Origin: Pegea sp. RAD2-039
Taxonomy: Eukaryota > Chordata > Thaliacea > Salpida > Salpidae
Assembly: GCA_034620365.1 (NCBI GenBank)
Contig: JAQGEQ010000071.1
Location: forward strand, 5,642,001 to 5,706,000
Length of the DNA: 64,000 nucleotides
Direction of reading: 5' to 3'
A program made the translations under genes and the position numbers. Positions 16,975 to 46,682 of the stretch are shown one piece after another. Numbering within the stretch: position 1 is the stretch's first letter; every line of letters starts with the position of its first letter. Below the pieces are notes generated by a model. The model was not told the origin of the DNA. It saw nothing but the letters and a program-made list of their open reading frames with translations, and searched no databases.

Positions 16975-19900
16975 TTACACAGAAGTAGATTCATTTGTCT
17001 GTTCTAGACATGGACTTCGTGAGAAGATCTTTTTTCTTGTACCAAAACTGTGAATAGCGACGTAAAGATGACGATGAAAACGGGAATATATTATTGGATT
17101 CAAAATACTGTTAATAGGAAGTAGAAATATCGCGATCTTTGCGTAAATCTCTGGAGGCAGTCGGTATACAGTAAAGCTAAGAATTGCAAGGGTACAAATT
17201 GGGAACCAGCAAAGCGCGTTTGTCATCACTAAAAGAGAAATTCTTCTCTTCAGCGTTTGCTTCTCTCTTGTTGCTTCTTCTCCGTAACACTGAGAACTCT
17301 CCCCTACTCGTCGATTTAATGATTTTCGGTAGATGATGACGTAACAAATGATAATGACTAACAACGCTGTTGTGTTGTACATAGTGATTGTGAGTGAGTA
17401 GATTTGATTCCTAGTGTAACTAACGAAGACATCAGGAAAGCAGATACCATAGAAACTGTAGTAACTGAACATACCATCAATAAATAGATATCTAGTTGGA
17501 AAACGAATTCTAGAAGCTGCATCAAAAAAGACAAACGATTTCCGCCCTGTATTCCACTGATAATTATTGGCAGCAATTATTTGGTTGGTTCTTGAGATGT
17601 ATCGATTTAATGACGTCACACTCACATTAGATGCCTTGAAGTATAATTTGTTGCCGGATATTAAGACACTGTTACTAAAATAAGATTTAGCTACGATTGG
17701 TAAGATACTGACAAACAAAGCCTGGGCCCATATCACTGTTACTACAATCCAACAATGCCTAGCTGTTATCTTAGATGTGTTAAACGGACGCAGGACTACA
17801 ATTAACCTCAATATAGTCAGGGCAGTTAAAAGATTGACCGTGACTAGGGTGGACGTTAAAGTCAGCATACCGATGGAGTTACATGTATTACTAACCCGCC
17901 ATTGGAAGTGATAGAAGCAATATTGACCACCAAAGCGCAGAGCCATTGTCCCAATAACAAGAAGAGCCAGACCCATAAGCAAATCAGCTGTAGCAACATG
18001 AGCAACAAATAATCGGTTGCAATAAGCTACTGAATTTCGAATTTTACAATTTTTAAGTTCCCTAATAGAGTAGAAAATGACCCAAGTGTTTGCTAAAGAA
18101 GATAACAATCCTATAATCCATACATAAGTCCGAATAAGGATTTGTGCTATCATTTGATTGGACGAAGCAAAACTATCATTTATCTCTTCCCCGCATTCAT
18201 CTGAGTTATCATCACAATCAAAGACGCCATCAAATACTTGGGAACGATTAACAAAAAGTTTTGTTCCTTCTTTACAGTAAAAATGAGTTTTCTCAGGACA
18301 TCCTATTTCATCAGATTGATCTAAACAATCAATGATGAGATCACAACGTTGAGACATATTCACACTATCACCAACATACTTTGGTAGTGTCCCTGATAAC
18401 CTCACGGCAGTCTTACACCAAAAGATTGAGGGGCAATCAGATTCATCTACCCCATTATCACACTGTTTTACTCCATCACAAATTTCTGAGGACTTAATCG
18501 CATTCGGCAGCCGGTTAATAAGGCAGGGCTGGTCCCCAGTGTGGTTTCTACTACAAAATGTGGACCTATAAGAACAGCTAGGTGAGCATTCGTCATCTCT
18601 AAAGGGACACTCTAATTTGCCGTCACAAAACGTTGCGCTGACGTCATACTTAAAGCGAAAACGCTTTTCCTGAACGATACTTCGACAAGTGTACTGGGAT
18701 GAAACATCAACTCTGACGTCATCATGACAAAATCGTTCGTCTATTGCATCACTACAATCGATGACGTCATCACATACCAAACTATGGTTGCCTAGCAACG
18801 TCTGGGCACAGTCATGTTGTATGTGAAGAAGAGGATAAACCAACTGACAAATTGGTTCAGCTTTTGTTTCTTCACAGCAACATTCATCAGATAAATCAGG
18901 ACAGTCTATAAACCCATCACAAAGCTGTTTCGGTGAAATAATCGTCTTGTTGTCAAGGCAACGCGCGCATTGAAAGTTGCCCTTGTTGTCATAGCAACGG
19001 TCTGATTTATCGGGACAAAATGCGAATTTATTTGTCAAAGTAAATTGAGGAACGAAACACTTGCTTCTCGAAACGACGCATTTGAACCCTGAAAGCTCAT
19101 TCGTTCGTTCATCAGATCCATCTGTGCAGTCACGTGTTCCATCACATGTATAAGCCCAAGGAATACAAACAGAAGTATCGTTGCTACATCTGAAGCGTCG
19201 AGGTTCATCACAAAGTTCGATTTCGTCGCTACAATCTGCACAATTCTTAACTCCATCACAAAGATACTTTCGAGGTAAACATCGAGAACCATCTTCACAA
19301 GCAAATTCATCTTCTGTACAATTTCTCAATTGTTCTTCTTCATCTATTCTTGATTTACAATCGAAAAGGGAATTACCCACCCACGATCTTGGTATGCATC
19401 TGTGTTCTCCAACACATTCAAACTCTTTGTGAAGATTACAGTCGAAATGGGGAAGATTTTCATCAGTAGCGTTGATACAGTCAGCAAATCCATCATTTAC
19501 ACGATATCTTGGTATACATCGACCATTTACCGAACATCTGAACTCATTTTGATCATTACAATCCAAAGCTTGATCTTCATCACTTCCATTTAAGCAATCT
19601 TTCATTCCATTCATCACCATGTCACGTGGTATGCAACGAAGTGTCTTGTCATGGCAACGGAACTCTGTTGTTGAATCACAAGATTCTAAAGGTTCATCTT
19701 CATCACTTGTATCATTCAAATAATCCTGAAAATTTTGAATAAAATTGGTTGTTAGTAACTTTCACTTCTTTTATTTATCTGTTATACAAATATAGAAAAA
19801 ATAAATGGTTTGTAACGCAAATATGTAAACTTATCTCAGTTTATTGTTATTGAAACTAATTTTAGTTTTTTAAGCTCATCAATTATTTATCACGCGTAGG

Positions 19901-21554
19901 ATATACTGATATAATTTAAACTTTTCAAAAGCATAAAAGTTTAATGCCAAGTCAGTTTCTAAACTAATTAAATCTCTAAACTTAAAAATATTAATTATGC
20001 AAGAGCAAGAGTAAAGTTACATTGAAGTTTGGATAAATTATTCATATAAGTTTTAAAAATAGAGAACAAAATAGCACTTGTGGTTAACGTATCAGGAAGT
20101 TCTATATCTGCAACTAACTTCATGTAAGGAGCAATCTACCGAACCATCCTTGACCCATTTACGAGGAATACATCTTTCACTTAATTTGCATTTAAACTCA
20201 TTTTGATGGCATTCGATTGAAATTGAATGTACTTGATACTCACAACCAAACATTGTGTTAATTTCATGTCTTTCTACGCAACGGCTACAACAAAAAAGAA
20301 GAAAAATTCATTAAAAAGATTTACTTCTTTAGTTTTGTTGAAGTAATTTTGAAAATTGTATGCAGTAGCATCTTTTAGTTTTATCGTATCTACAGTATTG
20401 CTTCATATTTTATTCGTTTCATGAAAGTACAAATTATGTTTTAATAAAATTTTGTGAAAATTATTTCAATATTCTTATAAAAAGTTGAGTTTTATCTCAA
20501 TAAGTTCAGATTAACTTAAAAAGTTCAACATTTTACAAAGTTTTCTTCAGTAGTCTTTGTAGAGATAAGATCAATTTTATTCAATAAGACTTCATCAGAT
20601 AATGTCTTACAGCAGGGTTCCTTATTATTTTATGTGCAAATCAGTTCATGTACTTTTACTAACTTTGTGAAAATTTTTTTCGAAATTATAAGAAAATTAT
20701 TAAATAAAATCAAAACTCCAAAGAAATTAGTAAAGATGAAAAACTGACTTGTGTGTCTTACAACTTAACTCATCATCTGAGCAAGTGATGCCAAGAAAAG
20801 AATTTGAATCTTTACATGCTCCTGAGGGACTGCTCAATCTGTTCACTACAGATCTTCGGATGCAGTTATCATCTGGATGCTTCGGACATCGGTAGAAACC
20901 ATCTTCTGATCTGCATGGATATATTCCTGGTTGTATTGAAGGACCATCTTCAGGAACAGGATATGCTTCTGATTCAAATCAAATTTTTTGTATTTATCAA
21001 TCATTTGATAAAAATTAAAATAAAAAGTTTCAAAATATTCTATTTCCAACAAGTTAAAAAGTCACTTCAAAGTTGTTTTTCTTCATCGTTATTATTTCAT
21101 AGACATTTTGAAATCTCAAAAACTTTATTCAATTAACGATGAATAATAAAACGAGCAATTAGCTTTGTTCCGTTCCTGATTTGAGTAAGTTTTGTTGTTT
21201 AGTTTATGATGAAGTTACCTGGACAATAATCACAATGAGGTGAAATGTAACCACTTTCTAACGACTTATTGCCAAAGTGTGTGAAGCATGGGTCTTCAAG
21301 AAAAGCTTTTTTAGAGCTACAAGCTCCTAACATAGATGACCTGCACACGTGACCACTTGTGGTGCAAGATATTTCTAGAAAAATTAATTTATTTTAGTTT
21401 TGAAATATAAAATTAGTTAATAAATTATTTGCAAAGTATCAGCTTGTTGCCGATTTTGTTTACATCATTTGAAAAAGTGATAAAAGAAAAACATCTTACT
21501 TTTGCTTGTACATTTAAAGATTACAGCTAACAAAATTAACAAAAACTTCTCCAT
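16975..21554 (-). CDS. Receptor A: LDLa-repeat 7TM receptor
   Basis: Large cell-surface G-protein-coupled receptor of the LGR/relaxin/GRL101-like class, with LDLa modules as ectodomain. Five exons: 21500-21554 (signal peptide MEKFLLILLAVIFKC), 21219-21374, 20749-20968, 20119-20284, 16975-19725; 1115 residues, phases 1, 1, 2, 0. The small exons encode a cysteine-rich region with a CTTSGH...CDYCP motif. The big exon holds about 12 LDLa-like modules (CIPR, CDG, DGSDE, SDEC), then seven helices: NSVAYCNRLF before TM2, ADLLMG in TM2, LTILRLIVV at the end of TM3, CWFPIC in TM6, and LLPINSILNPIIYS in TM7 (NPxxY present). The DRY/ERW acid is missing (LRL). There are no leucine-rich repeats between LDLa and 7TM, unlike relaxin receptors and GRL101. 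The C-terminus is short, ending TNESTSV. The ligand is unknown. Confidence 0.93.
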
Positions 21555-22270
21555 CTTGTTAGAGTTTATAAAAGTCATCTTGAAATAATCAAAATATCAG
21601 TTTGAGCTCCTTAAATAAAGATTTTTTTGGTTTTTATTTAATTTCTAAGTTTGAATTTGAAAACATAAAATGTTCTGTTTTTACGCCGATTAAAAACATG
21701 AAAGTTAATTTTGGGGAACTCGTTTCACTGCTAAAGAGCTACGAATCTAAAGAAAGCGATTTGGAAGTGATGAAAAACAAAAAACAGAAATAAATTTGGA
21801 GAAAATTGTTGGCAGTAAAATAGAAATTTGAAAACTGACAAATTAACTTAAAAGATTGCAATTTTTATTGAAAATTTTCAAATTTTACTGAATTTAAAAC
21901 TTTAGTTGTAGACTAGAAAGCTAAAAGAAAACTGAAGTTGATATGCATCAATGAATAAACTTCTGTTCTTCTAAAAACAAAAACTTTAAATCTTTTGAAA
22001 TTTGTAATTGGCTAAAAGACTAATACGTTAAACTAAAGTCTGTAAACTTGTTATTTAATTAGATCAAACTTCAATTTTTCTCATTGAAGTTTCCAACTTC
22101 TAATTGTCATCAGAAAATCAGGATGTTTACATTAAAATTTTTAAGTAGAAACGTTTTTATCAAATAACAAGAAATTAAATCAACATTTAGATATTATTGC
22201 AATTATGTCCACTAGAGGGCAGAAGTGAGAGAGTTGGAGAAATTTCCCTTTTTTTCTTATAACTTTTATT
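20396..22270. repeat. Inverted duplication, left arm
   Basis: About 1.87 kb that recurs as its reverse complement at about 36955-38822, with introns and 5' flank conserved as well as exons (I estimate well above 95% identity by eye). It spans receptor A exons 1-3 and about 0.7 kb upstream. Homology stops at about 20396 (before exon 4) and at about 22270. Confidence 0.9.
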
Positions 22271-22317
22271 AATTGAGTTTTTTCTGGGCAAAAAATGAAC
22301 GGAAGGAAGTTTTATAT

Positions 22318-22545
22318 CTGCAACTAACGTCATGTAAAACTCTCGAGCGATTTTTGAACCATTTACGGGGATTTCACTCAATTTGCATTTTAACTCATTT
22401 TGATGGTTTTTAATTGCAATTACTCACAATAGAATATTGTGTAATTTCATGTCTTTCCACGTAACAACTACAAAAAACGATGCTGAGTCATTGAAATATT
22501 TACTTCGTTGTTTTAGTTGAAGTAATTTTAATGAAAATTGAAAAA
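22318..22545 (-). pseudogene. Decayed copy of receptor exon 4
   Basis: About 230 bp clearly related to receptor A exon 4 and its flanks (20090-20365). Shared landmarks include TATATCTGCAACTAAC, the TTTACG-GG run, CATTTTAACTCATTTTGATGG and ATTTCATGTCTTTC. It has lost the CIPR region and carries several indels, so the frame is broken. It sits just outside the left arm of the inverted duplication, upstream of receptor A on the same strand, and looks like the remnant of an older tandem receptor copy. Confidence 0.8.
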
Positions 22546-25364: not shown

Positions 25365-25510
25365 TCAAATCCTTTTTTTTCAAGTCCCTTGAGACAAAAT
25401 GCTAGGAAGAAAGAAGCAGAGAGGCTTTGATTTGAAAGCCAGACTTCAAAACGATTGTTTGGTGACTTAGTCGTAACATTGATTCCAATGTTTCTATCAG
25501 CAAATTTAAA
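25365..25510 (-). other. Unexplained less AT-rich island with open frame
   Basis: A short island whose composition resembles the exons here rather than the spacers. On the minus strand, a ctgatag acceptor-like site at about 25496-25502 is followed by about 44 open codons (INVTTKSPNNRFEVWLSNQ and so on) ending at a TGA near 25365. No partner exon was found, so it could be a terminal exon of an unseen gene, a repeat fragment or chance. Confidence 0.2.
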
Positions 25511-27047
25511 ACTGAAAGATATTTTGAATATTTGTTAATTTGGTTTCGAATCATTTTTTCAGTAGTTGGCGATTTGAAAATCAGTTTATTTTTAATTTTT
25601 AGTATAAAAAAGCAGTGAAATGAATTTAGTTTAAATAAATTATTTTTGCAAGTTTGTCTTACTTTGTTGAAAAACTTGTTTAATCAAAGTGATGCTTAAT
25701 GCAAATACAGGTGGGTTAGACACTTTTAGAATTTCACTTGAGTAAATTTATTAATTTGAATAATTATTTATTCTTATGACTTATGATAAATATTTAAACA
25801 ATTTTGGACAAGTATCAAGATGAAAAATAATTTTATAGGAACGAAAGTTTTATGAAAAATTTATTTAGGTTTTTGTAAAAGCATTTAATAAAATGTCATT
25901 AAAAAAACAGATTCTCAGGATAATATGTAAGCTACTTAAAATGAATTTTTACATAAAATAGTTCGCATTTTTGTTGAAACTTTTTTCATATTGTTTATTA
26001 AAAGATTTTATTAATGACTCTGTCAGAATGTTTATTTTTTTTCGCGCAAATATCAGAAAATATTATAAAAAGTTTGCAGTAAAGAATAATCTCATATATA
26101 ATTTGCTAAAATTTTTAGAATTGCATTAAAAAAACCGATTTAATTACTGAATATTTTAGCAAATGCAAAATAGTGTTTCAGAAATTTGGTGATTACTGTT
26201 TACAAAAATAATCATTCAGTTTAATAATTAGTTTGATAAATGATAAGAATTTATCATTTTATAGTTTGATAATAAATTATAATTAGAATAAAGTTTTAAA
26301 GACAAATTACTTTGAGTAATTATTATCATTAATTTAAAGTATTGAAAATATTCTTTTTAAAACTAAGCATGACTGAGTTAAATTGTTATTCAAATTATTT
26401 AAAAATGCTCAAATTTAACCTTTATCCAAATCTTAAATCTAACAGCTTCTCAAAATGAAATAAAGTTAAGTTTCTCAATTAGCTTAACAAAGACATCAGT
26501 AATTCGAAATCAACTATCCAAGAACCACTTTGTCTGGAATTTAGTAAAGGAAAAAAACTTTAGCAAAATCTTGAGATTTAGAAGGTTGAAGTTTAAAATC
26601 ATGATATAGCGTTTGTTTGATCATAACACGGGTTCATATTCGTTGAAAATAGACATTTACTTTGTGGTGTCTTCAATAATTTACTTCAAAGTTTTATTTC
26701 AATGCAAAATTGATTCTAAACTTGATTCATTGAAACTTAATTTGCATTCTTATTTCAAAGCATTTTCGCAAACAACATTTTCAAAACTATCTTTAGACAA
26801 AATTTATTGATTATTAGGCAAATAAATATTTATTTAAGTTGAGTATAATTTATAGTTTTATTATTTAATTCTTTTAAATGAATGATTTATTTTTTGTAAA
26901 CTAGCTGCTACCAAAATACTTTTTTTATTTTAGTTTTTAAAAACTTAAATACTTTAAAATATCATTGAGTAACTTTTTTTCTTACCAGAATGGTATAAGT
27001 AGATTTTTTTAGGAGATAATATAACATTTACTATCTGTAAAATAATA

Positions 27048-30000
27048 ATGATGATATTAATGAAAGTTTTCATAATTTTATCAATTTTTGGCGTTGGAAA
27101 CACTAGAAGTAAGTTTTTTTTTAAATTCAAATTTAATTTTTAACTACACTTGTAAATTTTTTACAACAATCATAAGATTTGATGAAAAAATTTTTAGGTC
27201 TTTTTCTTGAAATTTTAAATTTTGTCTTAAACATTTTCATTAGCTTTATTTTATCCACACAGAATTTCTTTTAAGGAATTTTATTTCAGTCATGTCAATA
27301 CTCACATAGTTTATTTGAATCACATTTCAATTGAATGCTTTTTAATTTAATTGGTGTTTGTTACTGCATGATATAAACAAAAATATTTTAAGCTAGTTAT
27401 TAAGCTGTCACCACTCATATAATTTAAATGAAAGTTTGTAAACCTAGTGTAAATACAGAATAATTGCTGACAGGAAATTTAATAGAAAATAATTTATCTT
27501 TTCATTCAGTTAAACCTCAATTAAGTTTTCAAGCGCTAAAAATAAATCTTAGCTATTTGAACAATTTCATACATATATAAAGTTTAGTTTTTAAACGCTT
27601 GAATAACTTGATTTCAACTTTTGTTACAAAATCAAATATTTGTATTTCTAAAAGTAAATAATAGATTTGATAATGAAAAGATTCTTTTGTTAGATTATTT
27701 ATCTTAATAAGATAAATTTGCGATTAATAAAAAGTTTACATTGCGACTTAATAGTATCTTGCAGCTGCTAGTGACGTTTTTCCTTTACATTTTTTCACCT
27801 CAAATACCATTCTTTAATCTATAAAACTATTTTAAGCTCGAAATAAAACCTTAATCGTGTGAAAGATATAGATTTTGGTTTGTATTAATCAAATCAAATA
27901 TTTTCTAGAAATTGAGTGCACAGCAAGCGGGCATAAGTGTCGTCCAATCACAAGCCCTGTTTGCTCAATTGCTTTTCACAATGAAGGCGAATGCATGGAA
28001 GATTTATATGTCTCTAAAAGTTGTGACTACTGCCCTGGTAATTTTCATCATATTTATTTCTATTTGAAAATAGCTAAATTAAAAGTTATTTTAAAATATT
28101 TAAACCCGTAGATTTAGAAATATTATGAAAACTTTTTAGTCAACAGCAGATTATTTGAGGATTTATCTAAAAGTCAACTGTTAAGTTGTAGAATTAAGAT
28201 AATCTGAAAAAGAAATTGAAGTTGATAGTGACTACTCTTTAAATTAGTTTAATGAATTAAGAAGCTTCCAGCTGTTCTATTAATGTTCGTCTTTTGATTA
28301 AAGTTGATTTTATTATCAGTAAAACATTTTAACTTTGAAATCAATTTCTTTTAGTTTTCATTCTTTGATTTGTTAAAAATCAAACTGAATTTATAGAAAC
28401 AAAGAAGTTATATTGAAAGTTATCTGATATCATAATAAACTTCACAACATTTTACAATGTAGTTTACGAAACAAACTCTTTTTTAATACCTTCCTCTGTT
28501 TGTTGACTGAACTGTGACTCTATTTTTTAGAAACACACATCCCAGGTGTTAGTGGACCAAGCCTTGACGAAGATAAATACCCATGCAGACAGGAAGATGG
28601 TTATTTTAAGTGTCCAGATCATTTAGAAAATAATTGTGTTCGTCGGTCTATGTTGAATAAACTGAATTCTTTCTCTCCATGCTTTGGTTCCGGTAGTAGA
28701 TATACTTACTATAATATATCATGTACAGATGAAGAACTCATGTGCCATACACACAAGCAAGTTTTGAGAATTAATTTTTATAATTTGATTAAGCTCAAAA
28801 TAGGAAATTTATGAAATTAAATTTACAATTTGATGATCAAGATATATTTGAAAACATTTTTTAATAATTTTTTAAGAAGCTAAAAATAGAAATCTGTTGC
28901 AACAACCGCATACTAATGGGACTTAAGATATATTTAGTTTTAATATTTAAGTATTTGGCAACTGTAAATTATTAAATAAAATTGACCTTAGTAATTATAA
29001 CTTATCCAAATTTTCAAATATTCTGTTCAGTAATTTATGGAAACTTTTGTTTAGAAAAAAAATTCGAGTTTAAAAAAAAACTAAAATAGCTAAAAAAATT
29101 AGCATTTGCTGAATTCAAATCGATTTCAAAGTTTACTGATTTTTCCAACCAAGTTGTTCCTGAATACAATTCCAATTTGTACATTAAAGGTAACAGCATT
29201 TCTCTTTTAGTCGCTGCGTAACGCGTTTTGAAATCAATACTCGGTTTGGATGTGAGTTTTCATCTCGACAACTTCACATTACTTGTCATCAAGAAGATGA
29301 GTTTGAATGTAAGATCAGTAAGCGATGTATTCCTCGTAGATGGATCAGAGATGGTTCCCCTGATTGCTCTCTAAATGTGGTAGGTTCAGAGAAAGTTTGT
29401 TTAAAGTTGTTACAATTAAAAACTTTTTAGGATTATTTGAATGATACAAGTGATGAAGATGAACCTTTAGAATCTTGTGATTCGACAACAGAGTTCCGTT
29501 GCCATGACAAGACACTTCGTTGCATACCACGTGACATGGTGATGAATGGAATGAAAGATTGTTTAAATGGAAGTGATGAAGATCAAGCTTTGGATTGTAA
29601 TGATCAAAATGAGTTCAGATGTTCGATAAATGGTCGATGTATACCAAGATATCGTGTAAATGATGGATTTGCTGACTGTATCAACGCTACTGATGAAAAT
29701 CTTCCTCATTTCGACTGTAATCTTCACAAAGAGTTTGAATGTGTTGGAGAACACAGATGCATACCAAGATCGTGGGTGGGTAATTCCCTTTTCGATTGTA
29801 AATCAAGAATAGATGAAGAAGAACAATTGAGAAATTGTACAGAAAATGAATTTGCTTGTGAAGATGGTTCTCGATGTCTACCTCGAAAGTATCTTTGTGA
29901 TGGAGTAAAGAATTGTGCAGATTGTAGCGACGAAATCGAACTTTGTGATGAACCTCGACGCTTCAGATGTAGCAACGATACTTCTGTTTGTATTCCTTGG

Positions 30001-32163
30001 GCTTATACATGTGATGGCGAGGAACAATGCTCCGATGGATCTGATGAACGAACATATCAGTATCCTGGTTTCAAATGTGATATCGGTGGACAAAGATGTC
30101 TCGTACCTCAATACGCGCTAAAACTTCCATATCTTAACATTTGTCCCGACAAATCAGACCGTTGCTATGACAACAAGGGCAACTTTCAATGCGCGCGTTG
30201 CCTTGACAACAAGACGATTATTTCACCGAAACAGCTTTGTGATGGGTTTATAGACTGTCCTGATTTATCTGATGAATGTTGCTGTGAAGAAACAAAAGCT
30301 GAACCAATTTGTCAGTTGGTTTATTCATCTGATCCAAAAGAACCAGACACCTGTTCGAGTCCTTCACAAGTTTGTAACGGAATCGATGAATGTGGTGAAG
30401 ACGAAAGATTCTGTTTTGACGCGCGCTTACACCCAAAAATTAACTCTTCATCTTTTTGTACAAATGAGTTCCCAAATATCGGTTTAAAGATGAGATTTAA
30501 TCGAAGACCCACTAGATTTTGTGATGGTGTAGTCACGTGTATGTTTAGAGAAGACGAATGTGGAGTTAATTGTAATGATAGTTCACTTTGTCGTAAAATT
30601 AGCAGTAGCGTTAGTTGCCTGGTAGATAATATCCACTCGTTCCTACCTGCCGATCAGATATGTGATGGTGTGATGAACTGTGATGATGGATCAGATGAAG
30701 TTGACTGTATAGGAAGATTTGAATGTGATGCCAGAGATAGTTCATTAAACAAAAGGCTTGAAGGTAAAATTGTTAGCATCGAACAAGATAAAATCTGCGA
30801 CCTCAAAGTTGATTGCTTAGATTATAGCGATGAAACCAATTGCCCTGATACAACTCATTTTTATTGTCTAAGTGGTGAAACTATTTTTGTAAGCAGAGAT
30901 AAATGTCTTAATAGTGTTTGGGACTGTACAGATGGGTCAGATGAATGTCCTCCTGAAAGTTATAAGGAAAATATTTTTTCAGATCGTAAGGAGCTTTTCA
31001 AAAATATTTTTATGCGTATTTGTGTCTGGATAACAGGATCACTTTCCATAATTGCTAATATTTTAGTCGTACTTTTTTCAAAACGAAAACTTCAGCACTG
31101 TCGACAGAAAAACTCAGTCGCTTACTGTAACCGATTACTAGTCCTTCACTTGGCAATATCTGATTTTTTAATGGGTATTTCCCTTTTTATTCTTGCTAAT
31201 AACTCACTCAAATTTTCAGGAGATTATTGTATACATGACGTACAATGGAGAAGCAGTGGAACTTGTAATCTAATTGGAGTTTTAACTATGCTTTCTACAC
31301 AAGCATCTATTAATATTTTAACTGTGTTAACATCACTTCGTCTTTATGTCACTATGAAACCAATGACACTCAATATGGTCCGCCACCGCTTGTGCTGGAT
31401 TGTAATTCTGTTCTCATGGCTGCTAGCTTTAATTTTTAGCACTATTCCTGTGTTGAAACCTCATAAGTTTGCCACACAATACTGGATTGCTCAACAATCC
31501 TTCTTTAAAACTTCTTTAGTTACTTCTGATTCAATTCAAAAGTACTTGAGTAAAAATAACCAAATAGTCAATACGAGTCAAGTGTTAGATGAAGGATTCT
31601 GGTTTTCAAATGAAGCTAACTCAACTTTTCCAAATCGATTTATTAAAATCAAAGGAATCTTCGGTTACTACAGCACTCAAAGTATTTGCTTTCCGAACTT
31701 TTACACGGAAACAACTCACCCTCACTTTACATATTCATTCTGTATCATCACCTACAACACCTTAGCTATGTGCTTCATTGCGATTAGCTACTTCCTTATC
31801 TACAGAAAGTCTTTAGTAAAGAAAATGGTCTCAACGGATGTCAACAATTCTTCAGTAGATCAAGATCGTCGAACATTACGACGACGAATCACTTTGGTTG
31901 TTATGACAAACAACTGTTGTTGGTCGCCAATTTGTGTCATGGCTTATATGAGTTTTGCTGGCTTCTCACTACCATCAGTCGCTTATTCTCTATCTGCAGT
32001 ATTTCTCCTTCCCATCAATAGTTTTCTAAACCCTATGATCTATTCGATGTTGCATCGGCGAGCTTACAAGAAGGTCAACATCACTATACGTCGCCTCTAT
32101 TCTGACAAACGCAGCACAATAATTGATGACGTCACTGAACAGATTGAACTAAACTCTGCTTAA
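27048..32163 (+). CDS. Receptor B: LDLa-repeat 7TM receptor
   Basis: Paralogue of receptors A and D. Five exons: 27048-27108 (signal peptide, MMILMKVFIILSIFGVG), 27909-28037, 28531-28756, 29211-29379, 29431-32163; 1105 residues with the same intron phases (1, 1, 2, 0). Intron 3 begins GCAAGT rather than GT: only the GC donor at 28757 keeps the phase used by A and D. The ectodomain has the CTASGH...CDYCP segment, then about 12 LDLa-like modules. The 7TM part shows NSVAYCNRLL, SDFLMG, LTSLRLYVT (no DRY acid), CWSPIC and LLPINSFLNPMIYS. Residues 4-195 of the last exon are almost identical to A and D; the 7TM domain is strongly diverged. An AATAAA at about 32462 can serve polyadenylation. The gene lies between the arms of the inverted duplication. 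Confidence 0.93.
29437..30017 (+). repeat. Ectodomain block shared by A, B and D
   Basis: 581 bp in receptor B, matching 43920-44500 in D and 19139-19719 in A (reverse strand). It encodes LDLa modules 1-5 with only a handful of amino-acid differences (for example SVNGRC/SINGRC, TEDEF/TENEF, EDQ/EEQ), and silent sites are also almost unchanged. Similarity drops abruptly after ACATGTGATGG. This is a sign of recent homogenisation, not simply of protein constraint. Confidence 0.9.
30143..30326 (+). repeat. Second ectodomain block shared by A and B only
   Basis: About 185 bp from CCCGACAAATCAGACC to GTCAGTTGGTTTAT, essentially identical to 18835-19018 of receptor A (reverse strand) and absent from D, which has a diverged version. 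It encodes CPDKSDRCYDNKGNFQC through the CDGFIDC module. It lies between stretches where A and B differ strongly. Confidence 0.88.
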
Positions 32164-35100: not shown

Positions 35101-37661
35101 TAGATTGAAAAGGTGGTAAATAAACTTTTTCAACCACACCATATTCAAATAAACCTTTTTCGATCGTATAAAACTGTTCACAATTTAACATTTGATAAAA
35201 ATGACAGGTATAGTGCACTTAGAAAGTTAAAAATGTTTGATAACGATTAATATTTATCAAATTCTACGTAGAAATTTTGTTACAAACATTTGAAAATTGT
35301 GTAAATAGAAATCGATACTTAAGTAAGATTTATGAGTAAAATCTCCTTTCCACAAAGTTATCTTTTTTGTATTTTTATCAAGCATATTTTCTATTACATA
35401 CTAAAGTATATTTTTCTAAGTAGCTTTAATTAAGATTGATTTGATTTTTTGTTAAATTTTTTCAGATTGCTTGAAATTTATGTACATATTTTGTAAGTAA
35501 AAAATATCAAAATTAGGAATAACTTTCAAAATTGATTGCTGATAGTTTAGTTCTATCAACAGGAATTTTTCTCCTTCTTAATCTTATTTACTAAAGAACA
35601 TCCTGTTTAAGGTCATGCCCTAAAATAAAGACTGATTAGCCAGACTACAGATTCAAAAAGCTTAAATTATACAAAGCAAACTTCGTAACAGAAGTTATCA
35701 TTCATATTAAGTTTATTCAATTAGTATTTTGTCACATATTTTATCTTAATTAAGAATTTTTAGTGTTTCAGTTGATAATGAGAAACGTACATTTGACAAT
35801 TTTACTCAAGTTGACTTTGTTTGAGTAAATAAAGTGAAATATCCTTTAAACTGAAATTATTATGGATTGAAACTACGAATAATAGAAATCGATTTATACA
35901 TGTTAACATTAACAGCTTTACTAACAAAACAAGTTTTGTAAAGTTTAACATTGAACTAAACAATCATTTGTGTGAAGAAAAAAATCTAAAACTTCTTATT
36001 CAGAATTTAACTTAAATGGAAAAGATGGTTATCCAAAAACCCAACAAATGTCATTTATTATAATTAGATTAAATAGAACTTGTAGCTCTCAATTGAAATT
36101 TTAATAAAATTGAAAAACTATTAGAGTCTGAATAATAATTTGTTTTCTGAAACGCTTTCATAATAGGCTACTACATTATAAAAAAAGCTCAATTTTAATT
36201 TTATCTTTACAAAAACAAAACATAATTGTCTCTTTTTTTTCAACAAAAATTTCATTATCTTTAATATTTTACAATAACAAGTCTAGTAATGACTTGATTA
36301 AATCATTTATTTGAATCTTAAAAACAAAACGATAAAATATGAGGTCTAATATCGTAATAAAATAGGTTTTTGTGACTAAAATCAAATGAACAGCTCTTAA
36401 GATAAGTAAGGCAAGGTTAAAGAAATTTTTTCACTAAATTTAATCTGATTTTTAAATCTGCAATTTTCATTCGAAAATTTTTCTCAAGTTTCAAGCTTAA
36501 GGAATTTGGCATCCATGAAATAAGCTCATTTTCTAAGTAGGTCATTTCTTGAGATGTCTATCAGATAATTTTAGTTATAATCTTTAAAAAATAAACAAAT
36601 TTTTGGGTCAATCGAAAAGTATGTCTTAAAATTTATTCTGTTTTTGAAATTTATCAAATTAATTTTTAAACAATTTTAGTTTCTTAATTTTTCTCAATTT
36701 GAACAATTGAAAAACAAATCAAATTCCCCTTTTTCTGTAAACTGTAAACTAATTAAGCAAAGAAGTTGAACACGCTCTAAACGCGGATATGACGTCATCA
36801 CAGAAATAGTGTCGAGTTTTATTGATAGATGGGAAAGTAAACAGATGAGAAAGTTTTTAAAAGATAGCCGCCCTAAAAGAAAATTAAAATTAGATATTTT
36901 TCTCCGGATAAAAATAAGAATTTAGGTTATTAAACAAACCATCCAAATGGAAAAGTTATTATAAAAAAAAAATTTCTCAAACTCTCTCACTTCTGCCCTC
37001 TAGTGGACATAATTACAATAATATCTAAATGTTGATTTAATTTCTTGTTATTTGATAAAAACGTTTCTACTTAAAAATTTTAATGTAAACATCCTGATTT
37101 TCTGATGACAATTAGAAGTTGGAAACTTCAATGAGAAAAGTTTGAAGTTTGATCTAATTAAATAACAAGTTTACAGATTTTAGTTTAACGTATTAGTCTT
37201 TTAGCCAATTACAAATTTCAAAAGATTTAAAGTTTTTGTTTTTAGAAGAACAGAAGTTTATTCATTGATGCATATCAACTTCAGTTTTCTTTTAGTTTTC
37301 TAGTCTACAACTAAAGTTTTAAATTCAGTTAAATTTGAAAATTTTCAATAAAAATTGCAATCTTTTAAGTTAATTTGTCAGTTTTCAAATTTCTATTTTA
37401 CTGCCAACAATTTTCTCCAAATTTATTTCTGTTTTTTGTTTTTCATCACTTCCAAATCGCTTTCTTTAGATCCGTAGCTCTTTAGCAGTGAAACGAGTTC
37501 CCCAAAATTAACTTTCCTGTTTTTAATCGGCGTAAAAACAGAACATTTTATGTTTTCAATTTCAAACTTAGAAATTAAATAAAAACCAAAAAAATCTTTA
37601 TTTAAGGAGCTCAAACTGATATTTTGATTATTTCAAGATGACTTTTAAAAACTCTATTAAG
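32164..37661. other. AT-rich spacer downstream of receptor B
   Basis: Contains receptor B's 3' UTR with a TGACGTCA at 32237-32244. It is otherwise AT-rich DNA without a recognisable gene. Another TGACGTCA lies at 36790-36797, just outside the right duplication arm that begins near 36955. A 60-codon ATG frame on the minus strand (35036-35218) has no support beyond being open. Confidence 0.5.
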
Positions 37662-38822
37662 ATGGAGAAGTTTTTGTTAATTTTGTTAGCTGTAATCTTT
37701 AAATGTACAAGCAAAAGTAAAATGTTTTTCTTTTATCACTTTTTCAAATGATGTAAACAAAATCGGCAACAAGCTGATACTTTGCAAATAATTTATTAAC
37801 TAATTTTATATTTCAAAATTAAAATAAATTAATTTTTCTAGAAATATCTTGCACCACAAGTGGTCACGTGTGCAGGTCATCTATGTTAGGAGCTTGTAGC
37901 TCTAAAAGAGCTTTTCTTGAAGACCCATGCTTCACACACTTTGGCAATAAGTCGTTAGAAAGTGGTTACATTTCACCTCATTGTGATTATTGTCCAGGTA
38001 ACTTCATCATAAACTAAACAACAAAACTTACTCAAATCAGGAACGGAACAAAGCTAATTGCTCGTTTTATTATTCATCGTTAATTGAATAAAGTTTTTGA
38101 GATTTCAAAATGTCAATGAAATAATAACGATGAAGAAAAATAACTTTGAAGTGACTTTTTAACTTGTTGGAAATAGAATATTTTGAAACTTTTTATTTTA
38201 ATTTTTATCAAATGATTGATAAATACAAAAAATTTGATTTGAATCAGAAGCATATCCTGTTCCTGAAGATGGTCCTTCAATACAACCAGGAATATATCCA
38301 TGCAGATCAGAAGACGGTTTCTACCGATGTCCGAAGCATCCAGATGATAACTGCATCCGAAGATCTGTAGTGAACAGATTGAGCAGTCCTTCAGGAGCGT
38401 GTAAAGACTCAAACTCTTTTCTTAGCATCACTTGCTCAGATGATGAGTTAAGTTGTAAGACACACAAGTCAGTTTTTCATCTTTACTAATTTCTTTTGAG
38501 TTTTGATTTTATTTAATAATTTTCTTCTAATTTCGAAAAAATTTTTCACAAAGTTAGTAAAAGTACATGAACTGATTTGCACATAAAATAATAAGTAACC
38601 CTGCTGTAAGACATTATCTGATGAAGTCTTATTAAATATAATTGATCTTATCTCTACAAAGACTACTGAAGAAAACTTTGTAAAATGTTGAACTTTTTAA
38701 GTTAATCTGAACTTATTGAGATAAAACTCAACTTTTTATAAGAATATTGAAATAATTTTCACAAAATTTTATTAAAACATTATTTGTACTTTTATGAAAC
38801 GAATAAAATATGAAGCAATACT
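36955..38822. repeat. Inverted duplication, right arm
   Basis: Reverse complement of about 20396-22270, including introns and upstream flank. It carries receptor exons 1-3 intact but stops before any exon 4. The opposite orientation puts receptor B inside a 14.7-kb loop between the two arms. Confidence 0.9.
37662..38467 (+). pseudogene. Receptor C: orphan exons 1-3 of an LDLa receptor
   Basis: Three intact exons identical in layout to receptor A: 37662-37716 (signal peptide), 37842-37997, 38248-38467, phases 1, 1, 2, 143 codons with no stop or frameshift. Only a few residues differ from A (SSKRAF for SSKKAF, SFLSIT for SFLGIT). All splice sites survive, including the donor after exon 3. No exon 4 or 7TM exon follows before receptor D starts at 41629, so this is a 5' fragment copied with the inverted duplication. 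It is either a truncated pseudogene or an alternative first part: its phase-2 end is compatible with receptor D exon 4 at 43429. Confidence 0.8.
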
Positions 38823-41628
38823 CTCGGAAATATTTTAAATAACTTTTTCTCCGCTATTTGGCTCACAGAGCAGTATGATTTTGGCAGCCACATGTTATTA
38901 AGAATAATTTTATAGAAAACAATTTCTATTAAAAAGGAAATAAAGCACTATAACAAGTAACCACAACTTAAAATTATTTCAAACAGTATGTAGCATTACT
39001 CTAATTAAGTAGTGTTTAAATTTTTTTGAATTTGTGTAATATATTTTTAGGAAATTTTTAATGATGCAGTAATTTTATTTTCGCAATAATATTTTTATTT
39101 TGATATTTTAATAATAAAATCCTTTAATAGTTAGTTAATTAGAAAGAAAAACTAAGAATCAGATTATTACATAAATTATGAAACTTTAATCATACTTATA
39201 AATTTTTTAATAAAAATCTAAGTTTTCAACTTTAATTTTGAGAAATATGAAATTAATTTCTGTTGCATCGTTGTAATAAAAGATAATTCCAAAATAAACC
39301 CGTTTAGTTGATAATATTACAAACTTCACGTTTACATATCGATGCATCATATAATTTCATGAACAGTTTGAAGTTTAACTGTGAGTTTATAACCAAGGAA
39401 AATATTTTAAGAATGAGAATAAGTTGAAATTGTCAAAATTATTCCACAAAAATTCAATGATAATTAAGGAAAAAAATAATTGAATTTAAATTATAAGATT
39501 TAGTTGTAGATTTTGAAATATTTTCAAAGGAATGTTTTGAGTCAGACATGGAGAGGTAGAGTTCAAATTTTATGATTAGAGCTGTCGATCTTATCATAGT
39601 TTTTAGTCATGGTAGTCACAGAGTGATTTGATGTCAAAATTTTATCTAAATAAAAAGATTCTATTTTTAAGTGACAGTTTCTATGCGTTGTCATTTTGTT
39701 TGAAATTACTTTTTGTCTATATATATAGTCGATATTCCATTTACAGATCAGAAAACCAACTTATTTTAATTACAGATGTTTTCTAAGACTAAGAAATTAA
39801 TATAACAAGCTTCATTACATGTGTAATAGCGTATACTATGTTGCAAAGGTTATGTAATTCCATATCTTACAGTTAATGCGTCATTTCTGACTTAGTGATT
39901 TAGATTTAGTCAAAATACGAGCTAAAGTTGGTAGTTTACTTATGTGTGAAATTCTGCATGAAACAAGCGAGTCATTAGTACCTTCAAGCACCAAGCACAA
40001 GATTTGTTTGTAAGCTGTTAACCATTATAAGATTTTTTATAGCTTTATTGGCAGAAAGGTTGTTAGATTGACTCAAATATTTCTATCAAAGTCTTATTTG
40101 AGTATTATAGGTATATTAATCTTATATTATTGAATGCAATCAAAAACAATTAAGTATGTTTAGAGTTAATTCAATTTTTTCATTACAATTTAATCTAATA
40201 TTGTTTATGTTTTGTAATTTCTTGTTTTTCATCTTGAAATAAAATTGGATATATTTTACTAAAATTGTTTTATATTTTTGTTTTTAATTTATTATTGATT
40301 CGTTTAAGTTTATATATTTAGTTATACATGAAAACTATACAAAAATATACTTATTTAGAGTATAAATTAGAATTTAATTTTATAGAAAATTATTTTCTAA
40401 ACAGTTTTTATTCAGTTTTTATTTGTTTTGTTACAAATTCTTTTTCAAGTATATGTTGCCTGAATACTTTTGTAACATTGGTAAAAAATTGATTTTAATA
40501 ATAACCACGTTCAAAATATTTTAATGCTATTTTCCAGTTTGACAGAAAACGTGAATTTTGAAATAAAAATTACACCAAATACAAAATATTTTATTTATTT
40601 TGCATAATATTCATTTTTTGTTAAATCATGTTGGAAATAGTTTAAAAGTAAAAACTATTAAACACATAAATTCGGTATTTTAATATTTCCAATTCTTTAT
40701 GCCACATAATATTTTGATATTTATATAAGCAATACATTTGCACTTTTCTTATTTAAAGGTTAATATCATTCAGTTTAAAGTTTTTAATTAATAATTAATT
40801 TGAACCCACTAGCACAAAAAACTGTTAATAAAAATATTTTTGTCTCACCAACGATTATGTGTATTTAATAAAGTATTATTAAAATACAAAATTGTCATGG
40901 GTTCACATCGGATGTTGTTATATGAGAAAAAATATTTTATTTAGTCTTCAAGCATAATGTGAAATTGTAAGACGCCAAAATATATTCTTGAAACTAAAAC
41001 TATATCTCAAGATTTTGTTTATTTTATGGAAAGTTGTAAAACAGAAAAGTTTTGACATCTTTTATTTTCATCTTTAATATATTTAAATCGATACTATACG
41101 ACTTGTGACAAAAAAAAAAGGTTTTAAAATGAAGTTTAAAGCAAAATTAAACTCTTTGAATTATTAACAACTATTAAAGTAAAGATATATGATATACCAA
41201 CTAATTTCTATATTCTGTAAAACTGTGTTTATATTTACATATAGTAAGCTTTTTAAAACACAATTTTTCAATTAGATCAAAATAGTTTTTAGTAAACTAA
41301 AAAAACATTCTATTGATTGATTTTCTTTATATAGATCTCTAAAATTTATATTTTTTTGTATATCGTCAATAAATAAGCAACTAATTTTTTTAGTAGATTT
41401 TTATTTAGAAAAATATTTTAAAAAAACGTTCAAATATTTACAGAATAAATTTTCCGATAAAATATTATTGGAATTAATTTATTTCTAACATTGATACTAA
41501 TAAATATTTTTAAAGATAATCTATAGGATTTTTTCTTTAAGTGCAACTTTAAAGTTTAGGTTAATCTGCTTTTTATGAGTCTTACTACAGAGATCGAATC
41601 ATAGAGTTTTATTCTACCTGATTTACAG
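38468..41628. other. AT-rich spacer between C and D
   Basis: The inverted-duplication homology ends at about 38822. The rest is AT-rich with no exon-like stretch that I could support on either strand; in particular, no receptor exon 4 is seen. Confidence 0.5.
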
Positions 41629-44600
41629 ATGATTTGCAAGTACTTTTGGATATTATTTTTCTTCTTCTGTGGGGCTCAGCTTAAAGGTATTTCTGAAGAT
41701 TCTACAAATAAATCGTCAAAATTTCAAAAAGTATTTCGTTTAGTTCACTAATTAGTTGGTCACATGTTTCTAACAAGCTTTGCAGCTTACAAAATTGAGT
41801 TGTTTACAATCAGCTTCAAAATACTTTTTTGTTTTTGTTTCTAATTTAAATAAAAATCTTATAAGGAAGCCAACTGAACCGCTTAATCAATTAATTGCTA
41901 ATTCAACTATTTAATTTGTTGCAAATATAGAATATCTAAAAGCTGAGAAAACTGTAGTAGGATTTACTGACAAAATTAGCTGTCAAAAATTTTCTAAAAC
42001 ATTTTCTTTTACTTTAAAACTAATTTGACACTAAAAATAAGCTTATATATTTAGTATAAACAGATGTAAACACTAGTTTTCGTTTTATATGTTTCGGCTG
42101 GAGATATTTTTTTCTTAATTTTGATTTGAAGAACCTTTATATCTTTGTAAAACATTAATAACAGAATGATGAATCCCAGCATATGTAGAAAGAGAACTAT
42201 TTTGTAAGCCACGACTCATAGTCAAAACGTCTAATGTAGAGTACAATAATTGATTAATTCTGATAATTAGTAAAGTTAACAGTGAAAGATTGCTTCTTGA
42301 AAGAAACCTAGTTTACAATATATTATAAGCAGCTGTATTTGTAAGCTTTCTGAGATAGTAGTTCAAGTCACTAAGTAACTAAATTTTTAATTATAAAAGA
42401 AGTATTGACCAGTATTACACGTCATAAACTAAACACTAATTTTTTGACATTAAATTAAAGAAGTATTGACCTAAACCTAGTTATGAACACTTGAAAGTTT
42501 TAAAGTGTCTAGAAACGATTACTTAAATAGAATTAAAAATATTTTTGTCATTATAATAGAAAATAATAATAACAAAGTAAATTATGTGCTTATTATTAAA
42601 ATATAGGTTAATATTAAATGACATAATTTTATAAATTGTGTAGTTATCAGGGCTTTGTAATTTAATAACTTACTTTGATTCTAATTTTAGAAAAATTTCG
42701 ATTTTAAACCAGATAATTTGAATCTAATTTGAAAAAGTTGCTTATAATTATTACACTAAAATTATATTCAATTCTGAACTTTTAAAACTAAATTTTCCTC
42801 TTTACTAATTTAAGCTTGAAAGCTAATTAAAAATGTCACAAGAGAATGAAAAATGAATATTTTTTGACAACTTAACTGTTAAACAGAACTCAGATGCACT
42901 ACAAGCGGACATCTGTGTATTGCTGAGAATCAAACAAACATGAACCCTTGTGCAACTAAAGCTGCTCACGATTTTCAGTGTTTTCAAAATGAGTTTATCT
43001 CTGGTATTTGTGACTACTGCCCAGGTTTATTTTCAAGACATGTTTTATACTCTTTTAAAATCTTAAGATTTGAAAAATTCTTTCGTAGAAACCCACCTTC
43101 CTCCTACACAAGGACCTTCAAACAAGGAAGGACTTTTCCCCTGTCGAAAAGAAGATGGGTATCATTTATGTCATGGAAATAAAAGCGATAATTGTGTGAG
43201 AAGATCGACTCTCAACTCACTTTTACATTTAACCCAACCGTGTAAATTGATTGATGAAAAAATAGAGTTTGTAGATATAAACTGTACAGATGATGAAATC
43301 ACTTGCAGGACACACAAGTGAGTATTGATTAGTTAGATGAAGATTAAATTCGTATAAAATTAAAAAAATGGAATATATAAAAAGTTCTATTATGTAACAT
43401 GATGGAAAACGCTTTAATGATTATTTAGGCGATGTATCAACCGTTATGAGCTGGGAACTGAATTCGGTTGTGAGTTTGACGCTGTTAACGTTTTTATTAA
43501 ATGTCATCAAGATGAATTTCAATGTAAATCAAGTAAACGCTGTATACCGCGGCGTTGGGTCCGCGATGGTAACGCTGATTGCTTGCTATCAAAGGTGAGA
43601 TTTTGATGTTTGTATGATAACGTTTTAAAGATTTATTGAGAGGTTAATCAACTTTTTAAGTTTGAATATCTGAAATATTTCCCAAACCTTTTATTAAGAA
43701 CAATATGAATGTTTTTTAAGTTGTTTAAGTTTCAATCGATTAAGAATTCAAAATAAATACAGAAAAAATGCTTTGAAAATAGAATAAAAAATGTAATCAT
43801 CTAAAATCAGATTATAATTTTCATTCATTTTGATGTAAAAGTTCAAAGCCTGAAATACAAAAATTTATAATTTTTGAAAAAAAGATTTCAAGAAAATGTT
43901 CCTCAATTTTTAGAAACCTTTGAATGATACAAGTGATGAAGATGAACCTTTAGAATCTTGTGATTCAACAACAGAGTTTCGTTGCCATGACAAGACACTT
44001 CGTTGCATACCACGTGATATGGTGATGAATGGAATGAAAGATTGTTTAAATGGAAGTGATGAAGAACAAGCTTTAGATTGTAATGATCAAAATGAGTTCA
44101 GATGTTCGGTAAATGGTCGATGTATACCAAGATATCGTGTAAATGATGGATTTGCTGACTGTATCAACGCTACTGATGAAAATCTTCCCCATTTCGACTG
44201 TAATCTTCACAAAGAGTTTGAATGTGTTGGAGAACACAGATGCATACCAAGATCGTGGGTGGGTAATTCCCTTTTCGATTGTAAATCGGGAATAGATGAG
44301 GAAGAACAATTGAGCAATTGTACAGAAGATGAATTTGCTTGTGAAGATGGTTCTCGATGTCTTCCTCGAAAGTATCTTTGTGATGGAGTAAAGAATTGTG
44401 CAGATTGTAGCGACGAAATCGAACTTTGTGATGAACCTCGACGCTTCAGATGTAGCAACGATACTTCTGTTTGTATTCCTTGGGCTTATACATGTGATGG
44501 TCCAAAGGACTGCACAGATGGATCTGATGAACGAACTAATGAGCTTTCTGGGTTCAAATGTTCCTCAGACCACTTTAATCAGTGTTATCGACCTCAATTT

Positions 44601-46682
44601 ATGCTTCAAGATAATAATCATTACTTGAAATCATGTCCTGATCATAGTGATTGGTGTTTTGAAGGCGATCAACTGGTTAATTGCTCTAGATGCTTGGATA
44701 AATCACGAATAATTTCAAAATCACAAATTTGTGATGGACTAGTTGACTGTCCTGACCTTTCAGATGAATGCACATGTGCAGAAGCTACAAACGTAGAACC
44801 TCTCTGTGTCTTGCTTCTATCAATGGATCAGAAACTACATCAACTCTTCCCTCTGGTTTGCGATGGAAAATCTGATTTGAAAGATGGTTTAGATGAAGAG
44901 TTCTGTTTTCAGAAAACTGAATCCATCATCAACACAGAAACTTGCAAAAGTCAGCATTCAGATTTCAATCTTAGTTTAAAAATAGGAGCAAGACAAATGA
45001 CTCGATGTGACCACGTGATTGACTGCCCACTTCGCGAAGATGAATGTGAATCTAATTGTACTGGAAATGAAGATCTTTGTTTCAACTTCAGTAAGATCTA
45101 TTGTTGGATTGATGGAATGTATCAGTCGGTTAGACAAGCTCATGTATGTGACGGAATCGTTCATTGTGAGGATGGGAGTGATGAGAGTAATTGCTCTTCA
45201 AATCCTGAATCTTGTTTTGGTCGTAAGCTTCATTATGATCAGTTTTCTCTGAAAAAAGTTCGAATTGAAAATCCGGCGCAATGTGATTTTGTTACTGATT
45301 GTAATGACTCCTCTGATGAGCTCAATTGTAATGAGACACATTTTTATTGTCAGGGAGGAACTCCTTTGTATATCCGGAAAGATAAAGTTCTTGATTTCAC
45401 GGTCGATTGTGACGATGCTTCTGATGAGTGTTCAGTTCAAATTAAAAGATTTCAAAATCGCGCTTTCGCGTCAGAAACCGAATTGCTGAACTCAAAATTT
45501 TTCAGAATATTTATTTGGATTACTGGTGGCGTTTCCATAATTGGAAATATTTGTGTGTTTATCATCACTGTCAAAAAGCTGTTTAAATTGAAAGAAAAAA
45601 ACTCAATCCCATATTGCAATCGTTTACTGATCTTACACTTGAGTATAGCTGATCTTTTAATGGGAGTTTCTCTTTACATCCTTGCTTTTAAATCCCTCAA
45701 TTACTCAGGGAATTATTGTCGTAACGATATTACTTGGCGTGGTAGTCTTACATGTAACCTAATTGGATTTTTCACTGTCCTTTCCTCTCAAGCCTCACTT
45801 AACATTCTAATAGTTTTAACAGGAGCAAGACTGATGGTTGTTGTTAAAAGCTGTCATTCAGGAGTCATCAAAATGCGTGTTTGTTGGCTTTTGATTCTCG
45901 TCTCTTGGGGATTAGCTTTTATTTTTGCTGTCGTTCCTTTACTCCATAACAGTCTTTCAACAAATCAAATCTTTTTAAGATCTAATCCATTTTTTAATAA
46001 GACCTCCCTTGTCACTGAACAACAGATGATCCGATATATGACAAGAACAAATCAATTTGGTAACATTAGTGAAGAAAAAACGTTTTTATCCAATTGGTAT
46101 TTTCTTACTGACCAGTCTAAATCTCTTTTTCCTTTTAGATCTGTATCAATAATAAGCTACTTAGGGTATTACAGCAACAACAGTGTATGTCTTCCAGACT
46201 ATTACACGTCTGCAGCCCCTAAGAAATATTTTTCTTTTACGGTGATAATGTATAATATTTGCTCTATACTTTTTATCACGATTAGTTATTACACAATTAA
46301 TCAACGCTCGCTTCCATACAAGACCGGATCTCTTCGTAGAAGATTTAGTGATACTTTAAACAGAGAAAAAGCAACTTTAAGACGAAGAGCTGCTTTTTTA
46401 GTTTCTACGAATGTATTTTGTTGGCTTCCTATTTGTTTATGTTCTTTGCTGACTTATGGAGGACTGGAACTTCCTATGGAGATGTACGCTATCACACAAA
46501 TAATTTTACTTCCAATTAATAGCTGTTTAAACCCTATTTTTTATTCTATGCTACCGCAAAGGTTAGTTGGATCAGTTTTAAATTACTTTAAATGCAATGA
46601 TAAAAAGGAAAATCCTAGCAACAGTCCAACACTTACTATTAAAGAAGCATATTTTAGCACAACAGTTTTCAACATGAAATAA
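41629..46682 (+). CDS. Receptor D: LDLa-repeat 7TM receptor
   Basis: Third complete paralogue. Five exons: 41629-41686 (signal peptide MICKYFWILFFFFCGAQ), 42887-43024, 43089-43317, 43429-43594, 43914-46682; 1119 residues, phases 1, 1, 2, 0 as in A and B. Exons 2-4 encode the cysteine-rich head (CTTSGH...CDYCP; TCRTHK; KCIPRRWVRDG region). The last exon encodes about 12 LDLa-like modules and a 7TM domain with NSIPYCNRLL, ADLLMG, LTGARLMVVV (DRY acid absent), CWLPIC and LLPINSCLNPIFYS. It shares the 581-bp block with A and B and, just beyond it, the DGSDERTNELSGFKC segment with A only, and then diverges. The C-terminal tail is somewhat longer. It is convergent with UNC79, 2.2 kb away. Confidence 0.93.

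What the first reader, a model, noticed from the sequence alone, without database searches (positions are those of the whole stretch)
16975..46682. Mosaic ectodomains in a clustered LDLa-7TM receptor family
Receptors A, B and D share a 581-bp block (LDLa modules 1-5) that is nearly identical including silent positions. A and B alone share a second block of about 185 bp. A and D alone share the segment between them (DGSDERTNELSGFKC). Intervening modules and the whole 7TM domain are strongly diverged. Such patchwork is what gene conversion or module shuffling among neighbouring copies produces. The swapped parts are the ligand-binding modules, so the cluster may generate receptor diversity.
Basis: partly seen in the sequence, partly recalled or inferred. 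Interest (0 to 1): 0.78.

Follow-up and report, generated by a model that had tools for sequence, protein, structure and literature searches.

The report
Receptor genes copying one shared segment
Three old, very different neighbouring receptor genes of a small animal carry an almost identical stretch of their outer part, best explained by DNA copied repeatedly between the genes, which keeps that stretch alike while the rest diverges.

Summary
A, B and D are ancient LDLa-7TM paralogues: synonymous sites in the 7TM part are at or near saturation. The first 196 codons of their last exon are 97-99% identical (dS 0.04-0.07). A and B also share block 2 (184 of 185 nt).

The same happened elsewhere in this genome. 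Two linked copies on contig C265 share ~160 codons at dS 0.01 against 0.9-1.4 over most of the rest. C47 and C81 share block 2 and part of block 1. Of 91 gene pairs, 5 have strong tracts, including 4 of 4 linked pairs. Constraint alone is rejected: the same blocks are silently saturated against other paralogues.

Best explanation: recurrent non-allelic gene conversion, mostly in the segments that purifying selection keeps alike. It homogenises blocks 1 and 2; the private parts are the stretch between them, the later ectodomain and most of the 7TM. Module shuffling is disfavoured, since tract edges cut through LDLa modules.

The closest precedent is regional conversion in protocadherin clusters. 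It is a new member of a known kind, in an LRR-less, relaxin-receptor-like family of at least 49 places. GC3 is not raised in block 1, and function is untested.

The parts
16975..19725 (-). Receptor A, last exon: LDLa array plus 7TM
   Evidence: open frame 16975-19761; acceptor ...TTTTCAG|GATTATTTG; Pfam LDLa E 1.3e-37 and 7tm_1 E 1.1e-17
29431..32163 (+). Receptor B, last exon
43914..46682 (+). Receptor D, last exon
19138..19725 (-). Block 1 in A: first 196 codons of the exon, shared with B and D; the A-D tract runs on to 19079
29431..30018 (+). Block 1 in B
43914..44501 (+). Block 1 in D (identity with A starts at 43919); the tract with A runs on to 44560
18835..19019 (-). Block 2 in A, 185 nt, shared with B only
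   Evidence: 184 of 185 nt; pS 0 over 58 codons
30140..30324 (+). Block 2 in B
20119..20284 (-). Receptor A, next-to-last exon, with most of the LDLa module that the last exon would complete; diverged from B and D. Exon ends placed by hand from splice signals
   Evidence: 61% aa A vs B; LDLa profile positions 2-29 of 37; coordinates checked
29211..29376 (+). Receptor B, next-to-last exon (ends placed by hand)
43429..43594 (+). Receptor D, next-to-last exon (ends placed by hand)
20394..22267 (-). Inverted-repeat arm holding the upstream part of A: probable signal-peptide exon (ATG at 21578), exon a (about 21217-21381), exon b (about 20730-20978) and introns
   Evidence: 98.0% to 36951-38822 over 1875 columns, 33 mismatches; the DNA search of the genome found only these two and a 34-nt match
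36951..38822 (+). 'C': 5' fragment of a receptor gene, the other arm; tblastn found no exon c or last exon between it and D's own exons
22305..22460 (-). Decayed copy of the next-to-last exon with stops, upstream of A

Best explanation
A, B and D are old tandem or inverted paralogues of an LDLa-7TM receptor family. Double-strand-break repair repeatedly used a neighbouring paralogue as template (non-allelic gene conversion), copying up to about 640 bp at the start of the last exon and, between A and B, a second ~185-bp stretch. Purifying selection keeps blocks 1 and 2 similar enough between paralogues to go on recombining. The segment between them, the later ectodomain and most of the 7TM diverged past the homology limit, or resist conversion because they carry each receptor's own specificity. 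The result is a set of receptors with a shared outer module string and private remaining parts. SHOWN: the mosaic, its silent-site nature, its recurrence in other groups, its link to proximity, and the greater protein constraint on the blocks. INFERRED: that conversion rather than another copying process made it, the repair route, the homology-limit argument, and any functional meaning (shared ligand or activation element versus private specificity).
For: Sharp silent-site contrast: block 1 dS is 0.04, 0.07 and 0.07 (A-B, A-D, B-D), while 7TM dS is 2.28, saturated and 1.95. Permutation: 0 of 2000 reach the observed tract for each pair.

Recurrence: the linked pair C265a/C265b has dS 0.01 over 162 codons, with its 5' edge again within a few nt of the apparent splice acceptor, against 0.91-1.44 in the gap, block 2, later ectodomain and 7TM (0.39 over A-residues 250-285). 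C47/C81 has dS 0.04 in two tracts, A-residues 98-180 and 252-335, against 0.41-1.14 in the gap, later ectodomain and 7TM.

Proximity: 5 of 91 pairs have strong tracts (scores 496-591; the next is 67). They include all 4 pairs lying within 25 kb on one contig and 1 of the other 87; hypergeometric 1.9e-6, though the pairs are not independent.

Constraint on the blocks: against the paralogue C84, A has dN 0.41 in block 1 and 0.30 in block 2, but 0.67 in the gap, 0.71 in the later ectodomain and 0.73 in the 7TM; dS is about 2 in both blocks.

Edges: at the acceptor in A/B and 5 nt inside the exon in D, where unrelated introns begin. At least two events: A-B is closer than either is to D in block 1, and block 2 is shared by A and B only.
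Against: GC3 is not raised in block 1 (0.21-0.22 against 0.30-0.37 in the 7TM of A, B and D), unlike the rise reported for fugu protocadherins (PMC1852091, passages). C47 and C81 lie on different contigs, so proximity is not shown there. The 7TM is not wholly exempt: C47/C81 are 91-98% alike around A-residues 593-650, and C265b-C81 and C47-C265b have short high segments near 588-643. In one search, 18 of 78 pairs exceeded all 300 permutations, 13 of them weakly (scores 66 or less), so short conversions or local constraint also exist outside the strong cases. C47/C81 are also about 90% alike at A-residues 38-97. Trees differ in branch length but not significantly in topology: AU p 0.24 for A+D and 0.285 for C265a+b held as clades in the 7TM. 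The large near-identical array shows no such contrast; its N part is the least conserved (mean 0.937). No alleles, reads or other species were available.
Confidence: 0.85

Rival explanations
1. Strong constraint alone, on protein plus codon usage or an overlapping regulatory element, keeps blocks 1 and 2 alike without DNA exchange.
For: Blocks 1 and 2 are the more constrained parts as protein in comparisons with C84.
Against: A against C84 has dS about 2 in both blocks, and A against C39 is saturated there. The near-identical sequence is specific to each cluster: A/B/D and C265 block 1 are only 60-61% alike in DNA.
Confidence: 0.03
2. Recent exon or module shuffling: an LDLa cassette was duplicated into older genes as a unit.
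For: Block 1 starts at an exon start in A and B.
Against: Block 1 starts inside a module split by the intron and ends inside module 5. Introns are not carried along. C265a/b end elsewhere, and the two main C47/C81 tracts lie inside the exon. The blocks sit in register with the homologous codons, as conversion requires.
Confidence: 0.06
3. Conversion with a cDNA copy of a neighbour's mRNA as donor, which would explain a 5' edge at the splice acceptor.
For: Edge at or within a few nt of the acceptor in A/B, D and C265.
Against: The next exon upstream is not homogenised (61% aa between A and B). Unrelated introns bound any DNA-level tract equally well. The two main C47/C81 tracts have no exon edge. 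The A/C repeat holds introns as well, so DNA-level copying has happened at this locus.
Confidence: 0.05
4. Assembly or polishing artefact.
For: No raw reads could be seen.
Against: Within codon columns 14-206 A, B and D carry 3, 4 and 9 private bases. The window lies on a 6.1-Mb contig, and the pattern is seen independently on C265 and C47/C81.
Confidence: 0.03

Closest known systems
Regional gene conversion in clustered protocadherins (fugu, zebrafish, human)
   Same: Clustered cell-surface receptor genes; one part of the ectodomain is homogenised at silent sites among neighbours while the rest diverges; homogenised parts differ between subclusters (PMC1852091, passages; PMC3966226, passages).
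   Different: Different receptor family; in fugu the 3' region of the variable exon is homogenised, here the 5' part of the last exon; divergence outside runs to saturation here; GC3 is not raised in block 1; no shared constant exons were seen.
Conversion against selection for new function (Innan; RHCE/RHD named in the reference title)
   Same: Conversion acts over some exons, and selection may keep one exon free of it (PMC3966226, passage and reference).
   Different: That work is on the human RH genes; here three groups of receptors show it, with two tracts in some pairs.
Type C LGR / relaxin receptors (RXFP1/2) and GRL101-like receptors
   Same: LDLa modules before a class A 7TM; the best solved match to the 7TM part is relaxin receptor 1 (7tmw, E 1.4e-29).
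   Different: No leucine-rich repeats found by Pfam, and many LDLa modules. A starfish GRL101-like protein has six LDLa motifs and is discussed as an LRR-containing type C2 LGR (PMC6267866, passages).

Membership tests
Domain-restricted ectopic gene conversion in a receptor cluster | Silent-site homogenisation confined to a segment of otherwise diverged paralogues | tested here: met
Domain-restricted ectopic gene conversion in a receptor cluster | Goes with physical proximity | tested here: met
   4 of 4 linked pairs, 1 of 87 others; the exception is C47/C81, on different contigs
Domain-restricted ectopic gene conversion in a receptor cluster | Same segment affected in independent subgroups | tested here: met
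   block 1 in A/B/D, C265 and part of it in C47/C81; block 2 in A/B and C47/C81
Domain-restricted ectopic gene conversion in a receptor cluster | Raised GC3 in converted tracts (seen in fugu protocadherins) | tested here: not met
   block 1 lower than 7TM in A, B and D; block 2 of A and B 0.36 against 7TM 0.37 and 0.31
Domain-restricted ectopic gene conversion in a receptor cluster | Orthologues in sister species less alike than paralogues in the blocks | not testable with these tools
   no related animal genome is held (one search says the genome has no relatives here)
Type C LGR / RXFP receptors | N-terminal LDLa module(s) | tested here: met
Type C LGR / RXFP receptors | Leucine-rich repeat ectodomain | tested here: not met
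   no LRR family in 5 last-exon proteins at E up to 5 nor in 6 upstream exon stretches at E up to 1; HMMER's filters drop most matches above about 0.1
Type C LGR / RXFP receptors | 7TM of class A closest to RXFP/glycoprotein-hormone receptors | tested here: met
   among the 60 shown of 116 PDB matches, RXFP1 (1.4e-29) then LH, TSH and FSH receptors lead for the 7TM part; sequence only

The most novel reading that the evidence does not exclude
The two shared segments form an evolved common sensor or activation head that is kept identical across functionally different receptors by position-specific conversion, with break hotspots or selection at these sites. The 98% inverted repeat around B lets the cluster invert and exchange 5' parts, so individual animals carry different receptor combinations.
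Probability: 0.1. Interest if true: 0.75.

Novelty: new member of a known kind. Interest (0 to 1): 0.5.

Why it matters
It is a very clean natural case (dS 0 to 0.07 against saturation inside one exon, with the same segments affected in three groups of one genome) of conversion and divergence partitioning one receptor into a shared and a private part. It marks which ectodomain segments probably do a common job, and it warns that trees built on the N-terminal LDLa part of such receptors give false recent duplications.

Tried and rejected
Topology conflict between block and 7TM trees: not significant; the contrast is in branch length. GC-biased conversion: no GC3 rise in block 1. Same contrast in the large array: not seen in the 23 members examined of 36 found; segment means are 94-98% identical. 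Structure of A from the three-row alignment: mean pLDDT 34, unusable, not searched further. Rfam on the window: 0 matches at gathering scores. Missing signal-peptide exon of D served by C's first exon: none found in 41801-42886, but a candidate of D's own exists at 41629, so this was dropped. Species: GC 27% in the window and 105.7 Mb fit monogonont rotifers (GC 25-31% in PMC11954553, passages), but this is not proved. Literature: the listings show, by title, no paper on gene conversion in LDLa-7TM receptors; most subscription papers are not held.

Limits of the scan: 36 of the 49 family places found were examined (13 diverged genes and 23 array members); the 13 left out all belong to the array. 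C382a and C46a entered with frames that lack the N part, and several frames were cut at the locus end. One search lists four further partial array places that were not examined. Permutations were run for 78 pairs, not for the 91. The hypergeometric figure treats pairs as independent, which they are not.

Full report
WHAT IS THERE. The window is part of a 6.1-Mb contig of an unnamed 105.7-Mb assembly. Three receptor genes share one layout: a next-to-last exon with most of an LDLa module, then one long last exon with many LDLa modules and a rhodopsin-type 7TM. A is on the minus strand, B and D on the plus strand. One search finds 49 places of the family in this genome, 46 of them outside the window; these counts are lower bounds, and adds four partial ones. 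Thirteen of the 49 are diverged genes (A, B and D included) and 36 form a near-identical array, mostly on small contigs.

THE MOSAIC. Outside the blocks A, B and D are about 50% identical in DNA, and the 7TM is 36-44% identical in protein. Synonymous sites in the 7TM are at or near saturation. In block 1 (588 nt) A-B match at 580, A-D at 571 and B-D at 570 positions, with dS 0.04-0.07. In block 2 A and B match at 184 of 185 nt with pS 0 over 58 codons, while D against either has dS 1.99. None of 2000 permutations reaches the observed tracts. Private bases in codon columns 14-206 are 3 in A, 4 in B and 9 in D, so A-B exchange looks the more recent.

EDGES. In A and B identity begins at the splice acceptor, in D 5 nt later; the introns before it are unrelated beyond the acceptor's T-run. 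That acceptor splits an LDLa module: exon c matches profile positions 2-29 of 37. The other end lies inside module 5, at CysAspGly. Tract ends therefore ignore modules, which speaks against module shuffling.

RECURRENCE. C265a and C265b, 12 kb apart, share about 160 codons at dS 0.01 from nearly the same 5' edge, and are at 0.91-1.44 in the gap, block 2 (codons 252-309), later ectodomain and 7TM, with a more similar patch at A-residues 250-285 (0.39). C47 and C81, on different contigs, share A-residues 98-180 and 252-335 at dS 0.04, but are at 0.51-0.61 between these, 1.14 in the later ectodomain (345-455) and 0.41 in the 7TM. In all three groups the stretch around A-residues 208-240 and much of the later ectodomain escape. 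A scan of 91 pairs (13 diverged genes and one array member) finds five strong tracts, with scores 496-591 and the next 67. They include all four linked pairs and one of the other 87. In 299 comparisons of diverged genes with 23 array members the best score is 54. Permutations, run for 78 of the pairs, single out 18 (0 of 300 reach the score), the five strong ones and 13 weak ones with scores up to 66.

WHY NOT CONSTRAINT. Block 1 of A against C84 has dS 2.06 and dN 0.41; block 2 has dS 1.98 and dN 0.30; later ectodomain and 7TM have dN 0.71 and 0.73. The blocks are more constrained as proteins, but silent sites saturate when genes do not exchange. Constraint probably helps by keeping homology long enough for recombination; this is inference.

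MECHANISM AND MEANING. Recurrent non-allelic gene conversion homogenises the outer LDLa string and block 2. What differs between receptors, and so could set ligand choice or signalling, is the rest. Conversion here reduces diversity within the blocks. It could still create new combinations, as the A/B/D patchwork shows, but no excess of useful variants is shown. In RXFP1/2 the LDLa module is needed for activation (starts of the abstracts of PMC3822782 and PMC4837482, listing), so a shared activation element is a reasonable guess, untested here.

AGAINST. GC3 is lower, not higher, in block 1. Trees do not conflict significantly in topology. The large array does not show the contrast. C47/C81 are not shown to be linked, and parts of their 7TM (A-residues 593-650) and of their block 1 before residue 98 are also rather alike, so their pattern is less clean. 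No reads, alleles or other species were available.

SURROUNDINGS. A 1.87-kb inverted repeat at 98.0% (20394-22267 and 36951-38822) carries A's probable signal-peptide exon, exons a and b, and introns. Behind the second copy ('C') tblastn finds no exon c or last exon before D's own exons. It flanks B, so recombination between the arms would invert the B segment (inference). The DNA search found the repeat only here, apart from a 34-nt match. A decayed copy of exon c lies at 22305-22460.

KNOWN RELATIVES. As a process it matches regional conversion in protocadherin clusters (passages of PMC1852091 and PMC3966226). As proteins these are relaxin-receptor-like in the 7TM (7tmw), but no LRRs were found, so they are not filed as RXFP or GRL101 members.

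Noticed in passing
window 20394-22267 and 36951-38822: 98% inverted repeat of 1.87 kb with A's 5' exons, flanking receptor B; C is a 5' gene fragment with an open signal-peptide exon.
   Followed up: partly
window 22305-22460 (-): Decayed next-to-last exon with stops; the stretch around it has 73.5% DNA identity to 20094-20358.
   Followed up: no
own genome, contigs such as C172, C174, C179, C308, C343, C374, C377, C382; also C63, C46: 36 near-identical LDLa-7TM places, neighbours on a contig often about 10-20 kb apart, a few with stops; looks like a large, poorly assembled recent tandem array.
   Followed up: partly
window 19318-19680 (-), A residues 28-148, and homologues: The first LDLa modules are compact and seem to lack the cysteine before Asp-Gly, one cysteine serving between neighbouring modules; read by eye, with the canonical cysteine pattern recalled.
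   Followed up: no
window 3918-4070, 52955-53037, 59282-59409: Short dispersed repeat, three places in the window; two copies share the core AAGGAGGGTGnCTGAAGAGAGCACCT; no Rfam match.
   Followed up: no
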